Source of the DNA: Candidatus Gastranaerophilales bacterium
GTDB lineage: Bacteria > Cyanobacteriota > Vampirovibrionia > Gastranaerophilales > UBA9971
Reading direction: 5' to 3'
Length of the DNA stretch: 35,533 nt
Assembly: GCA_028278305.1 (NCBI GenBank)
Contig: JANQEP010000155.1
Location: 1 to 35,533 of the forward strand
The notes under the pieces are model-generated. The model was not told where the DNA came from and searched no databases. It saw only the letters and a program-made list of their open reading frames with translations. Positions 10,751 through 25,057 of this stretch are shown here, one piece after another. The translations under genes were made by a program, and so were the position numbers. The stretch's first letter is position 1. Every line of letters begins with the position of its first letter.

Positions 10751-11117
10751 TTTACTTTGCAAGGATTTTTAACAGCATCAGTGCTCTTAAAAAATTAAAA
10801 TTCTTCAAAATTTATAAAAATGAGGCGGGTGGGGGATTTTGAGAAAACTTCACCTATTACAGGGCTTCATGTATTTCGTGATTCAGGTTATTTAACCAAT
10901 GCCAGAAATTTTAAAGTATTATTTTTTGCAAATGTAAAGAAATATTTCATTAACTTGTTAATTTAGTCAATTTTTTTCAAAAGAAAGTTTTTATATTATT
11001 AGAAGGTAATTTAAATTTAGTCTTATTCAGTATCTTAAAAATCTTAAAAAATTTAAAACTATTTAAAATTCAGAAATTAATTAGTTAGAGCTAAATAATT
11101 CGGGAAGGAAGTTTGGA
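10751..11117. other. Intergenic region with repeat C
   Basis: This 367-base gap contains GAGGCGGGTGGGGGATTTT (about 10822-10840) in an AT-rich setting. The same block, with two extra bases, recurs at about 27657-27680 after rsfS. A 48-codon frame opens at 10820 but has no ribosome-binding site and starts in the repeat, so I do not call it. The rest is AT-rich with no clear promoter or terminator. Confidence 0.5.
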
Positions 11118-12029
11118 ATGACTTACGATTTAGCAGAAGTGAATTTTACAGGTAGTTCTCGTTATAGAGATGCAAATATAGCGCTTAGGGGACTTGCTAA
11201 TCCTAGTTTTGAAGTTAATAATATCAGATTTGCCGACAGGTCGATTCTGGAGCAAATGGCTGAATCCATTCGTGCGCAAAGAGATCCTTTATTTGGTTTT
11301 AGAATTGCAAACGGCGACAGAATAGATCAAATACTCGAAATTAACGACCCGAAAATTGACCCCCTTAAACTTATAGCTCTCAACGATATATATTGCAAAA
11401 AATATGGTAAAGGCGATCCGTTAACTTTCATCAATGAATTAGAAGCACTGGGAGGTCATGCTGACTGGGGATATAACAGCAGAATTGAGCAAATGGTTAA
11501 AGCCGCTGTTATGGGCAGAAATCCGCAACTTGCAGCTGCATTAATTCTAGCGGCAGGCGAAGGACCCGGTGTTGATGGTAGAATAATAGGGGGTATACTT
11601 ATAAATTCAAAAGATGAAATGAATGCTCCCACTCACGCATTGTTTGTTGCACGGATAGCAGAAGCGTTCAAGCAAATTTCAGGCGGTGAAACGCTTGATG
11701 ATTTTATAATCAAAGAACACTCATCCAGTATTGCATACGGAATTACCGGCGGGCTAACAGGCGCAGCCGCAGGATTTGGAGCAGGTGTAGCGGCAGGTGC
11801 GATAGCAGGAATGGGTGCTTTTAGTATACCTGCAGCAGCAATAGGCGGATTAATAGGAGCTGTAAGCGGATTTGCAGCCGGATTTTTACCCGCTCATAAC
11901 GGCTGGTTCGGTACAGATGAAACCGGTAAGGAATATTTCCGGATACTTGATGAATCACGAAAAAACACTCATAACGTGGGTTATAATATGGGCTTTGGCG
12001 GTATGCCGTCGTTGCAGGGATTATTTTAA
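11118..12029 (+). CDS. Annexin-like repeats plus glycine-zipper protein
   Basis: 303-residue protein with no family I can assign with certainty. Two stretches resemble annexin repeats, which in annexins bind calcium and membrane lipid. Residues 47-110 run through FRIANGDRIDQIL and IALNDIYCKKYGKGDPL to FINELEALGG. Residues 137-200 run through ALILAAGEGPGVDGRIIGGI and AEAFKQISGGETL to DDFIIKE. Both show the order small-residue helix, acidic G-x-G loop, IL, aromatic, then YGK/SGG-like and Leu. Residues 204-258 are a glycine zipper (GITGGLTGAAAGFGAGVAAG), a typical membrane-inserting hairpin. FGTDETGKEYFRIL follows at about 264. The start has GGAAGGAA 7 bases upstream. Its stop overlaps the lpxA stop on the other strand. 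The annexin relation is my inference. Confidence 0.72.
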   Translation: MTYDLAEVNFTGSSRYRDANIALRGLANPSFEVNNIRFADRSILEQMAESIRAQRDPLFGFRIANGDRIDQILEINDPKIDPLKLIALNDIYCKKYGKGDPLTFINELEALGGHADWGYNSRIEQMVKAAVMGRNPQLAAALILAAGEGPGVDGRIIGGILINSKDEMNAPTHALFVARIAEAFKQISGGETLDDFIIKEHSSSIAYGITGGLTGAAAGFGAGVAAGAIAGMGAFSIPAAAIGGLIGAVSGFAAGFLPAHNGWFGTDETGKEYFRILDESRKNTHNVGYNMGFGGMPSLQGLF

Positions 12030-22600: not shown

Positions 22601-23383
22601 TTATTTTCCTTCTAGCCAGTTTTCACCATCTCTAAATAAATACTTTATCACTCCATCTTTTTCTATTTCTTTTCTATCCCAATTCACATCACCATAATCA
22701 TTAAAGCGCCTTTCTATTATATTGTCTGGGAATGTAGCGACTGTTTGTTCTAAATAATTTCCTTGCTGGTCATAATGGTTATTTACTATTTTTCTTACTG
22801 TTCCATCTGGGTCTTCATGGACATATTCTAGAACCTTTTTTATCCCGTTAATCTCGATATACCTGTAAATATCTCTTGATCCGTCTGTTCTCTTACGGAC
22901 AGTTTTCTCCCAATGTTCATCATAATCCTCATTATAAAATTTTACTGTTCTACCGTCTGGGTGGATTACTGTTGCTCTTCCTGCAATATTATTTTTATAA
23001 TCAGTAAGCTCTTCTACTCTTCCATCCGGGAATCTATTAATGACATTTTCAATAGCTTCTTCTTCATCAAATTGCGTTATTCTGATTATTTTTTCATCGT
23101 CCACTATTCTTGTTCTTCTTCCAGGTGGTCTTTCCGGTGGTATTGGAGAATTCGCCGCCTTTGGTGCAGTTTTGTTATCGGTGCCGGAAGCTGGTGGAGC
23201 TGGAGCCGGTGCTGATGGTACAGCTGTTGATGCAGGTGTGTCAGGTTTCCTGCCAAGAATTCTTGCTATTGCATCAGATCCGTCTGAATCTGCTGCCGGT
23301 GCTGGTGTTGCTGCTGCCGGCGCTGGTGGTTTTATTGGTGGTGGGGGTTGTGTTGCCGCTGCTGCTCTCCCGCTGGAACCCAT
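22601..23383 (-). CDS. C-terminal part of a split Pro-rich repeat protein
   Basis: 260-residue frame that most likely continues the 23332-24807 gene after a frameshift. Its own ATG has no ribosome-binding site and a stop codon stands directly before it. The first 75 residues are a Pro/Ala linker (TQPPPPIKPPAPAAATPAPA), the same kind found between repeat blocks in the upstream frame. The rest is repeats of the form PDGxxxxYxDYxxxxW: FPDGRVEELTDY, HPDGRTVKFYNEDYDEHWEK, RTDGSRDIYRYIEINGI, EDPDGTVRKIVNNHYDQQG, FPDNIIERRFNDYGDVNWD. It ends FRDGENWLEGK. Function unknown; the repeats recall YD or MORN-like beta-hairpin repeats. Confidence 0.6.
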   Translation of the reverse strand: MGSSGRAAAATQPPPPIKPPAPAAATPAPAADSDGSDAIARILGRKPDTPASTAVPSAPAPAPPASGTDNKTAPKAANSPIPPERPPGRRTRIVDDEKIIRITQFDEEEAIENVINRFPDGRVEELTDYKNNIAGRATVIHPDGRTVKFYNEDYDEHWEKTVRKRTDGSRDIYRYIEINGIKKVLEYVHEDPDGTVRKIVNNHYDQQGNYLEQTVATFPDNIIERRFNDYGDVNWDRKEIEKDGVIKYLFRDGENWLEGK

Positions 23384-24807
23384 TTATCTTGATCATAAAT
23401 ATATCTTTTCCTGCTTCCATCCGGCTCTATTACAGTTTTTTCAATTCCTTCATCAGTGTAGTTTTTGACCGTTATAGATCCTCCTACTTCTTTAATTATT
23501 TCTTTATCAACACCTGTAACCAATACTTCTTTATCTAAGAAATCTATTCCAGTCCTGGGATTATTGTCAGAATTTTCTAATATTCTAGTAAAATTAGGGG
23601 ATACCATAGTAGTTCTTACTACGTTTCCATCCGGGTTTTCCTCTACAACAAGACTCCCGCCACCTGTTAAATGAAATATGTCACTTCTTTTAACAGGTAA
23701 ATCACTTAATCGTAGATCAGGTGTTATCGATACTGCTGCTGTTGGTTTTGCTGGTGGAACTGGCGGAACCTCCCTATCACTATTAGTTGCAGCTGGTGGT
23801 GAAGCTGCTGGTCTGGTTCCCTCGTCAAGTGCGGTTGCTGGTGGAACTAATGGAGTTGGTCTTGCTGTTGGTGGGGGTGCTGTTCTTTCCGGCGCTGTTG
23901 GTCTTGGTGGTGGGGGTGGTGAAGCTGCCATGGCAGGATTAGACGTTGATGTACCTGTTGGAGCAGGTTGATCTATAGATCTGCCGGTATCTGTATTATC
24001 AGAGCCGAGGGGGTTCTTTGTTATTCTCGGTTCCCATCTCCCGTTATTAAGAATGTACTCTGTTATTTTATCGTTTTGGTCTCTAATTATTTTTGAGGTC
24101 GGTTCCCATTTATTATCATTATCATAATCAAAGTACATTTCTATTGATCCATCCGGGTGTTTAATTATTTTTTTGAACAGTGCCAGGTTTTCATCATTAT
24201 TTTTGTCAATATATTCTTCTATTACTCCGTATGGAGTTGTCACAACTCTCTTTACATTTTTATTCCCGGAATCATGGTATTTTGTAATTACTGCACCATC
24301 ATCCCTGCTGGCTTCTTCAGTTTTGCTATTGTCAATAATATCCTCAATTGTGTGATAGTTAAAATTATCTCTAAATCTGGGTGTGGTTGATCTGCCGGAT
24401 CCGGTTGCTGCCGGAACCGGTGGAGTTGGTCTAGCAGGCGCTGTTGGTCTTGCCTGCGGTGGAGCTGGCGGAGTTACCGCGCCAGGTGCGGATGATGTAA
24501 CTGTTGAGGTTGATTGACTTGAATATAGCGGTGTAAATTCATCGCCGCCGGTATTATAATTTAAGCTACCTCTGCCGTCCGGATTAAATATTGATGAATA
24601 CTTTCCTGGCTTCAGCGTTCTTGCAGCCTGGTTTCCATTGCAAGAACCTTCTTTACACATTCCCATTTTTTCCATGAATTTGTTTACCAGAGCCCATAAA
24701 GGTGTATTAGAATCTACTCCAAGCTGTAGGGTTACCTCACCCCGGTGCTTTTGAATAACTTCTCCTAATGTGTCTCCTGGCTTAAGTTCAAAACTAAAAG
24801 TTGACAT
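23332..24807 (-). CDS. LysM-like, Pro-rich PDG-repeat protein (split gene, N-terminal part)
   Basis: 491-residue frame beginning with a LysM-like module (residues 5-75: FELKPGDTLGEVIQKH to LKPGKYSSIFNPDG, with Cys51 and Cys56). Pro/Ala linkers follow (about 110-145 and 280-350). Between and after them are beta-type repeats with a PDG turn: VTTPYGVIEEYIDKNND, HPDGSIEMYFDYDNDNKWEP, EPDGSRKRYIYDQDKWVP. No classical signal peptide is seen. AGAGGG lies 9 bases before the ATG. The frame ends in GEQQRQHNPHHQ, out of the family pattern. A -1 shift near the run of five C (about 23343-23347) would join it to the next frame, giving about 735 residues. It may be a surface or cell-wall-associated protein. 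Confidence 0.72.
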   Translation of the reverse strand: MSTFSFELKPGDTLGEVIQKHRGEVTLQLGVDSNTPLWALVNKFMEKMGMCKEGSCNGNQAARTLKPGKYSSIFNPDGRGSLNYNTGGDEFTPLYSSQSTSTVTSSAPGAVTPPAPPQARPTAPARPTPPVPAATGSGRSTTPRFRDNFNYHTIEDIIDNSKTEEASRDDGAVITKYHDSGNKNVKRVVTTPYGVIEEYIDKNNDENLALFKKIIKHPDGSIEMYFDYDNDNKWEPTSKIIRDQNDKITEYILNNGRWEPRITKNPLGSDNTDTGRSIDQPAPTGTSTSNPAMAASPPPPPRPTAPERTAPPPTARPTPLVPPATALDEGTRPAASPPAATNSDREVPPVPPAKPTAAVSITPDLRLSDLPVKRSDIFHLTGGGSLVVEENPDGNVVRTTMVSPNFTRILENSDNNPRTGIDFLDKEVLVTGVDKEIIKEVGGSITVKNYTDEGIEKTVIEPDGSRKRYIYDQDKWVPAGEQQRQHNPHHQ

Positions 24808-25057
24808 CCCTATAATCCCTCTTTTTCCCCTAAAATTAACTACAATACTTTTCTCTTTATAATATTTATATTAATATAAAAACAAACACAATAAAAAAAT
24901 TGCTATATTTTTATAATTTTTATTAAAATTTTTGATATGACTCTTAAAAAGGTGTAGCGGTAATTTATAAATTAATAATTGTAACAAGTTTGAAAAAAAG
25001 ATAAATTTTAACAACAAATCTAATTTTCAGGGAAGTTATGTATTCAGAGAGTAAAGT

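What the first reader, a model, noticed from the sequence alone, without database searches (positions are those of the whole stretch)
11118..12029. Possible bacterial annexin-like protein with glycine zipper
Two stretches of about 64 residues (47-110 and 137-200) share the annexin-repeat order: helix, glycine-rich acidic loop, Ile-Leu, then an aromatic followed by a YGK- or SGG-type turn and an acidic helix. A glycine-zipper membrane hairpin follows, then FGTDE. Annexins are rare in bacteria, and a combination with a glycine zipper would suggest a membrane-binding protein or effector.
Basis: inference. Interest (0 to 1): 0.62.

Follow-up and report, generated by a model that had tools for sequence, protein, structure and literature searches.

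The report
Divergent bacterial annexin with membrane hairpin
A gut-type bacterium related to cyanobacteria carries a distant relative of annexins, the membrane-binding proteins best known from animals and plants, with a glycine-rich greasy hairpin apparently set into the loop that would face the membrane; it is one of many annexins in this bacterial order, a group in which I found no published report of them.

Summary
The ORF at 11118-12029 (+, 303 aa) is a real gene: homologs lie in all 10 genomes of its family, most of them beside lpxA-fabZ as here. Pfam finds nothing in the protein itself. Its relatives link it firmly to annexins. A profile of only the window genus finds P0002, a homolog from another family of the order (E 1.7e-6), and P0002 is an annexin by Pfam (35.2 bits, cut-off 25) and by PDB sequence (annexin VI, 2e-21). 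The family profile without P0002 matches annexin repeats over 64 columns (score 47; best of 100 shuffles 21). Repeat 2 is clear. Repeat 1 is weak but in register.

The glycine zipper sits between helices D and E of repeat 2. Relatives without it run D straight into E, so 'FGTDE' leads into helix E and is not a third repeat. By the annexin fold that loop faces the membrane, so I read the protein as a two-repeat annexin turned into a membrane-anchored one. Ca2+ ligands are only partly kept. Membrane binding, topology and an effector role are untested.

Wider: 19 of 286 sampled genomes of the order (Gastranaerophilales) carry annexins over Pfam's cut-off, including four-repeat proteins.

The parts
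11118..12029 (+). Whole gene: divergent two-repeat annexin with inserted Gly-zipper hairpin (303 aa, P0001)
   Evidence: homologs in all 10 genomes of the family; synteny with lpxA-fabZ
11229..11513 (+). Annexin repeat 1 (residues 38-132, predicted helices A-E); no GxGTD loop; weak but in-register match
   Evidence: prob 6%, helices B-D in register; helices 38-53, 59-73, 81-96, 101-110, 117-132; L014, L049, L050, L057 show the same register
11523..11723 (+). Annexin repeat 2, helices A-D (residues 136-202)
   Evidence: hhalign 95%, 64 columns; relative P0004 20.9 bits to PF00191, P0002 35.2 bits; model helices 136-146, 154-167, 170-188, 193-202
11556..11576 (+). A-B loop GEGPGVD (residues 147-153), the counterpart of the annexin type II Ca2+ loop MKGxGTD; T replaced by V; E200 lies at the place of the acidic cap
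   Evidence: alignments
11724..11900 (+). Glycine-zipper hydrophobic hairpin (residues 203-261) inserted in the D-E loop of repeat 2
   Evidence: absent from P0004, P0005, P0010 and P0002, in which D runs almost directly into E; no charged residue in 201-266
11907..11966 (+). Lead-in FGTDE plus helix E of repeat 2 (residues 264-283)
   Evidence: with the hairpin removed the annexin alignment runs on to 80 columns, score 44.3 to 49.4; P0004 aligned through helix E
10987..11005 (+). Promoter-like element GTTTTTATATTATTAGAAG, conserved upstream of the homologs
11103..11111 (+). GGAAGGAAG, ribosome-binding-like stretch conserved in the homologs

Best explanation
The gene encodes a divergent two-repeat annexin of the Gastranaerophilales, in which a roughly 60-residue glycine-zipper hairpin has been inserted into the D-E loop of the second repeat. 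In the annexin fold the A-B and D-E loops lie on the convex, membrane-facing side, so the hairpin would point straight into the bilayer. Most likely the two repeats dock on an anionic membrane, with Ca2+ help weakened or dispensable because only part of one type II site is left. The paired glycine-zipper helices then insert and anchor the protein, and neighbouring molecules could pack through the zippers. I favour the cell's own inner membrane, cytoplasmic face (membrane organisation or repair-like), because no targeting signal, toxin domain or secretion gene cluster accompanies the gene. Shown: annexin homology; position and variability of the hairpin; stable synteny; shared upstream element. 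Inferred: fold in detail, membrane side, anchoring, Ca2+ dependence, cellular role. Rough odds: annexin homolog 0.93; hairpin inserted in the D-E loop 0.8; hairpin spans or dips into a membrane 0.65; acts on the cell's own membrane rather than being exported 0.55.
For: Genus-only profile A2 finds P0002 (L014) at E 1.7e-6 over both repeats, and A3 (without P0002) at 1.9e-5. P0002 passes Pfam Annexin (35.2 bits, E 1.3e-8) and P0004 scores 20.9 bits, E 4e-4. P0002 hits annexin VI at 2.2e-21, and the 60 PDB sequences listed are all annexins or annexin A2 fusions. PDB hits of the family profile are all annexins. hhalign gives 93%, score 47 vs decoy best 21. The two-repeat model (pLDDT 73, pTM 0.73) shows helix order A-B-C-D-E-A-B-C-D, with annexins filling most of the top ranks over about 157 columns. 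The hairpin is an exact insertion relative to P0002, P0004, P0005 and P0010, and removing it extends the annexin alignment through helix E. The stretch is uncharged and hydrophobic. The convex membrane face with loop Ca2+ sites is described in PMC10882027.
Against: P0001 alone has no Pfam or NCBIfam hit and its PDB hits are noise. The genus-only profile does not reach solved annexins. Foldseek E-values are all above 0.3, and the full-length model is poor in the hairpin region (pLDDT under 35). Repeat 1 is barely detectable. The helix E extension is modest: at least 6 of 200 tail-shuffled decoys scored as high. The hairpin is missing from three family members, so it cannot be essential to the family's role. 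Its hydropathy is moderate.
Confidence: 0.6

Rival explanations
1. It is an exported, leaderless membrane-active protein (effector). The annexin part binds a target cell's membrane and the zipper hairpin inserts there, exported by a type III-like or other machine.
For: No signal peptide is evident in the sequence. The genome holds, besides flagellar FlhA with FlhB, a second full-length FHIPEP export gate below both the FlhA and HrcV cut-offs, next to a FliH/SctL-like gene. Other annexins of the order join a repeat to a Gly/Ala hydrophobic stretch and a further C-terminal domain (L027, L033, L037). Annexin domains are known in PVC-delivered polymorphic toxins (PMC3482391).
Against: No enzymatic domain follows the repeats. 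No export gene lies in the window or nearby. No contractile sheath is found in the genome. Synteny with the housekeeping genes lpxA-fabZ is stable. Annexins in PVC toxins are always followed by a toxin domain (PMC3482391).
Confidence: 0.25
2. It is a soluble or peripheral annexin-fold scaffold. The glycine-rich stretch is an oligomerisation or flexible segment and never enters a bilayer.
For: Hydropathy peaks only near 1.8. Relatives without the stretch keep the same synteny. Glycine-rich stretches can pack soluble helices (general knowledge).
Against: 66 residues without D, E, K or R, with two stretches of membrane-spanning length and G-x3-G chains. Relatives reach hydropathy 2.0-2.3.
Confidence: 0.2
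3. Not an annexin: an unrelated helical membrane protein whose motif order imitates one repeat.
For: No direct profile hit; non-significant Foldseek E-values; repeat 1 weak.
Against: Two-way profile links through P0002 and P0004, decoy-controlled scores, and in-register alignment of both repeats.
Confidence: 0.06

Closest known systems
Annexin family (Pfam PF00191; human annexins A1-A13)
   Same: Repeat of about 70 residues with helix order A-E, G-x-G loop between A and B, acidic position at the end of helix D; matched through relatives
   Different: Two repeats instead of four; repeat 1 without Ca2+ loop; T replaced by V in the loop of repeat 2; about 8 extra residues between helices B and C; hydrophobic hairpin in the D-E loop; below Pfam's cut-off
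Bacterial annexins of Kodavali et al. 2014 (PMC3894181)
   Same: Bacterial annexins with one to several repeats, divergent loops, some with transmembrane regions
   Different: That survey lists Bacteroidetes/Chlorobi, Gemmatimonadetes, beta- and delta-Proteobacteria and Actinobacteria; the text held never mentions cyanobacteria. No hairpin within a repeat is described in the sections read
Annexin domains in PVC-delivered polymorphic toxins (PMC3482391)
   Same: An annexin domain proposed to help cross or bind membranes
   Different: Those carry a C-terminal enzymatic toxin domain and a PVC metallopeptidase; this protein has neither
Glycine-zipper membrane motifs (Pfam Gly-zipper_Omp PF13488, Gly-zipper_YMGG PF13441, Rick_17kDa_Anti PF05433)
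   Same: Tandem G-x3-G-x3-G in a hydrophobic hairpin; sub-threshold hits in relatives P0006-P0008
   Different: No hit in P0001; here the motif is an insertion inside another fold, not a lipoprotein or outer-membrane domain

Membership tests
Annexin (PF00191) | Match to the annexin repeat profile over Pfam's cut-off | tested here: not met
   P0001 has no hit. Met by homolog P0002, 35.2 bits, and near-miss in P0004, 20.9 bits
Annexin (PF00191) | Homology of the repeat demonstrable by profile-profile or intermediate-sequence search | tested here: met
   PDB sequence searches
Annexin (PF00191) | Five-helix bundle per repeat, tandem repeats in a curved disc | tested here: inconclusive
   Helix order as expected in the model, pLDDT 73, pTM 0.73. 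Annexins top by Foldseek probability 0.47-0.89, but E at least 0.38
Annexin (PF00191) | Four (or eight) repeats in the core | tested here: not met
   Two repeats only; other annexins of the order have four
Annexin (PF00191) | Type II Ca2+ site: GxGT(D) in the A-B loop plus acidic cap about 40 residues on | tested here: inconclusive
   Repeat 2 keeps G149, G151, D153 and E200 but has V152 for T; repeat 1 lacks the loop
Annexin (PF00191) | Ca2+-dependent binding to acidic phospholipid | not testable with these tools
   needs liposome binding
Glycine-zipper Pfam families (PF13488, PF13441, PF05433) | Profile match over cut-off | tested here: not met
   none in P0001; only sub-threshold in relatives
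PVC / polymorphic toxin with annexin domain | C-terminal toxin domain and delivery system next to the gene | tested here: not met
   Protein ends soon after helix E. Neighbours are tyrS and lpxA-fabZ. No contractile sheath in the genome

The most novel reading that the evidence does not exclude
An annexin repeat has been turned into an integral membrane module by insertion of a glycine-zipper hairpin into its membrane-facing D-E loop, making a Ca2+-independent, membrane-anchored annexin. It belongs to a so far undescribed, order-wide annexin repertoire in non-photosynthetic relatives of cyanobacteria that share one promoter-like element and may be exported.
Probability: 0.4. Interest if true: 0.68.

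Novelty: new variant of a known kind. Interest (0 to 1): 0.52.

Why it matters
Annexins were long held to be eukaryotic, and a 2014 survey found only about thirty in bacteria with a patchy distribution. Here one bacterial order carries many, from canonical four-repeat proteins to forms below Pfam's detection. That gives a dense sample for asking where eukaryotic annexins came from. A natural graft of a membrane hairpin onto the membrane face of an annexin repeat would be an unusual, testable case of a peripheral membrane binder becoming an anchored one. The result also shows that counts of bacterial annexins based on the Pfam cut-off are too low.

Tried and rejected
Direct Pfam, NCBIfam and PDB searches with P0001 alone gave nothing usable. 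The genus-only profile against the PDB gave only noise, with acyl carrier protein fragments on top, so the case rests on intermediate sequences. Full-length AlphaFold with three sequences was poor and its Foldseek hits non-significant; trimming to the two repeats helped. A viral-contig scan found nothing. Family alignments A1 and A3 were too diverse for the degenerate-pattern scan. I rejected FGTDE as the start of a third repeat: relatives without the hairpin show it leads into helix E. Weak hits L010, L011, L012, L015 and L016 from the first searches were discarded: they are glycine-rich stretches or unrelated enzymes. One column-shuffle decoy gave an anomalous score of 129; it did not recur in 100 fresh decoys run with stale output removed and gappy columns dropped, so I treat it as an artefact of that run. 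I considered a lipid A link, because lpxA is next door and H. pylori lipid A binds annexin A5 (PMC10882027). The genes converge and are not one operon, so this stays speculation.

Full report
The gene. The ORF at 11118-12029 (+) encodes 303 aa behind a GGAAGGAAG ribosome-binding-like stretch. It stands between tyrS and the convergent lpxA-fabZ-lpxC-lpxD genes. The genome is a 2.17 Mb draft. Named relatives in GTDB contigs are 'Candidatus Gastranaerophilales bacterium' MAGs, that is, the non-photosynthetic sister lineage of cyanobacteria.

Homologs. A search with the protein, and then with the family alignment A1, finds one homolog in each of the ten genomes of its family and a few elsewhere in the order. 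Within the family the gene lies beside lpxA and fabZ in the window, L057, L038, L039, L040, L044, L046 and L047 (L038 to L040, L044, L046 and L047 are wider cuts around the same genes as L006 to L008, L005, L004 and L013). L056 has other neighbours and L041 ends at a contig edge. Stable synteny at 23-47% identity shows a real, old gene.

Is it an annexin? P0001 itself hits nothing in Pfam or NCBIfam. The link comes through relatives. P0002, from another family of the order, scores 35.2 bits against PF00191 (cut-off 25), and P0004, a syntenic relative, 20.9 bits. P0002 matches solved annexins, best annexin VI at 2.2e-21. To avoid circularity I built profiles without P0002. The genus-only profile A2 finds P0002 at E 1.7e-6, and A3 finds it at 1.9e-5 and also finds canonical annexins L023 (3e-4) and L019 (0.0017), at Z = 240,000 with reversed decoys in the set. 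The best reversed decoy for A3 was 0.006, and it falls in the glycine-rich stretch. In the other direction, a profile of canonical annexin repeats from the order finds P0004 at 3.4e-6, aligned through helix E. By hhalign A3 scores 47 (93%) against a best of 21 in 100 column-shuffled decoys; repeat 2 alone gives 95% over 64 columns; repeat 1 gives only 6% but in register with helices B to D. The family profile with P0002 hits 34 PDB sequences, all annexins; without it annexin XII is still the best, at 0.001.

Structure. The full-length model is poor (pLDDT 47). A model of residues 34-204 with three sequences reaches pLDDT 73 and pTM 0.73, with helices in the order expected for A-B-C-D-E-A-B-C-D. 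In Foldseek against the PDB, annexins A4, A11, A1 and A2 and an annexin A2 fusion fill most of the top ranks over about 157 columns, but E-values are 0.38 or worse. This is consistent with the sequence result and not proof on its own.

The hairpin. The hydrophobic stretch is present in seven of eleven family members and absent in P0002, P0004, P0005 and P0010, in which helix D runs almost directly into helix E. Removing it from the alignment lengthens the annexin match from 64 to 80 columns, through helix E (score 44.3 to 49.4); at least 6 of 200 decoys with a shuffled tail score as high, so this test alone is modest. Residues 201-266 hold no charged residue, with chained G-x3-G motifs and Kyte-Doolittle means up to about 1.8.

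Calcium. The A-B loop of repeat 2 reads GEGPGVD where canonical repeats read MKGxGTD; E200 lies at the acidic cap. Repeat 1 has no such loop. At most one weakened type II site remains. Reviews place these loops on the convex membrane face (PMC10882027). That the D-E loop also lies on that face is established annexin structure, cited from my own knowledge. It follows, by inference, that the hairpin would point into the membrane.

How it works. I favour a membrane-anchored annexin on the cell's own inner membrane. Two repeats dock on anionic lipid and the zipper hairpin inserts and packs with its neighbours. The rival is an exported membrane-active protein. For it speak the lack of an evident signal peptide, a second, unclassified FHIPEP export gate in the genome, relatives with an annexin repeat, hydrophobic stretch and extra domain, and the known use of annexin domains in PVC toxins (PMC3482391). 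Against it speak the missing toxin domain, the absence of delivery genes nearby, the absence of a contractile sheath, and the housekeeping neighbourhood.

Wider setting. PF00191 passes its cut-off in 19 of 286 sampled genomes of the order and in none of 14 control genomes. Several proteins have four repeats (L019, L020, L026). In another family of the class, with 5-9 Mb genomes, annexin repeats sit mostly in proteins of 800-3500 aa. The 2014 survey of bacterial annexins does not list this lineage and its text does not mention cyanobacteria (PMC3894181). Searches of the held open-access papers found no report of annexins in Melainabacteria or Gastranaerophilales. That library is incomplete, so this is not proof of novelty.

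Regulation. An element GTTTTTATATTATTnGAAG stands 60-140 bases before the start codon in the homologs and, in degenerate form, before several other annexin genes of the order. In the window's genome it occurs within one mismatch at only three places, each before an ORF, with none in the reversed-pattern control.

Verdict. The protein is a divergent annexin with an inserted glycine-zipper hairpin: a new variant of a known kind, of moderate interest because of the architecture and of the unreported annexin richness of the order.

Noticed in passing
window 10987-11005 (+) and 24865-24883 (-); G000 C41:179-197 (L054), C143:17655-17673 (L055): Promoter-like element GTTTTTATATTATTnGAAG shared by annexin genes of the order and a few other genes of unknown function: the 491-aa ORF at 23332-24807 (core 1 mismatch), a 308-aa protein with a hydrophobic Gly-rich end, and a 156-aa protein. 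It may mark a small regulon.
   Followed up: partly
L019 (G314), L020 (G246), L026 (G020): Canonical four-repeat annexins with GTDE loops in Gastranaerophilales genomes; G314 carries a second annexin gene with two repeats next to the first.
   Followed up: partly
L027, L033, L037: Proteins with one N-terminal annexin repeat, a Gly/Ala-rich hydrophobic stretch and a C-terminal domain unknown to Pfam; possible effectors.
   Followed up: partly
L058-L066 (same class, family f42): Annexin repeats inside very long proteins, mostly 800-3500 aa, in 5-9 Mb genomes of another family of the class.
   Followed up: no
G000 C53 (L069, L072) and C115 (L070, L073): Besides flagellar FlhA with FlhB (C9), the genome has a second full-length FHIPEP export gate that fails both the FlhA and HrcV cut-offs, next to a FliH/SctL-like gene, and a short protein with only the cytosolic FHIPEP domain.
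   Followed up: partly
window 22601-24807 (-): Two overlapping ORFs (491 and 260 aa) rich in Pro/Ala/Thr linkers, with acidic repeats like YFDYDNDNKWEPTSK, and no clear family.
   Followed up: no
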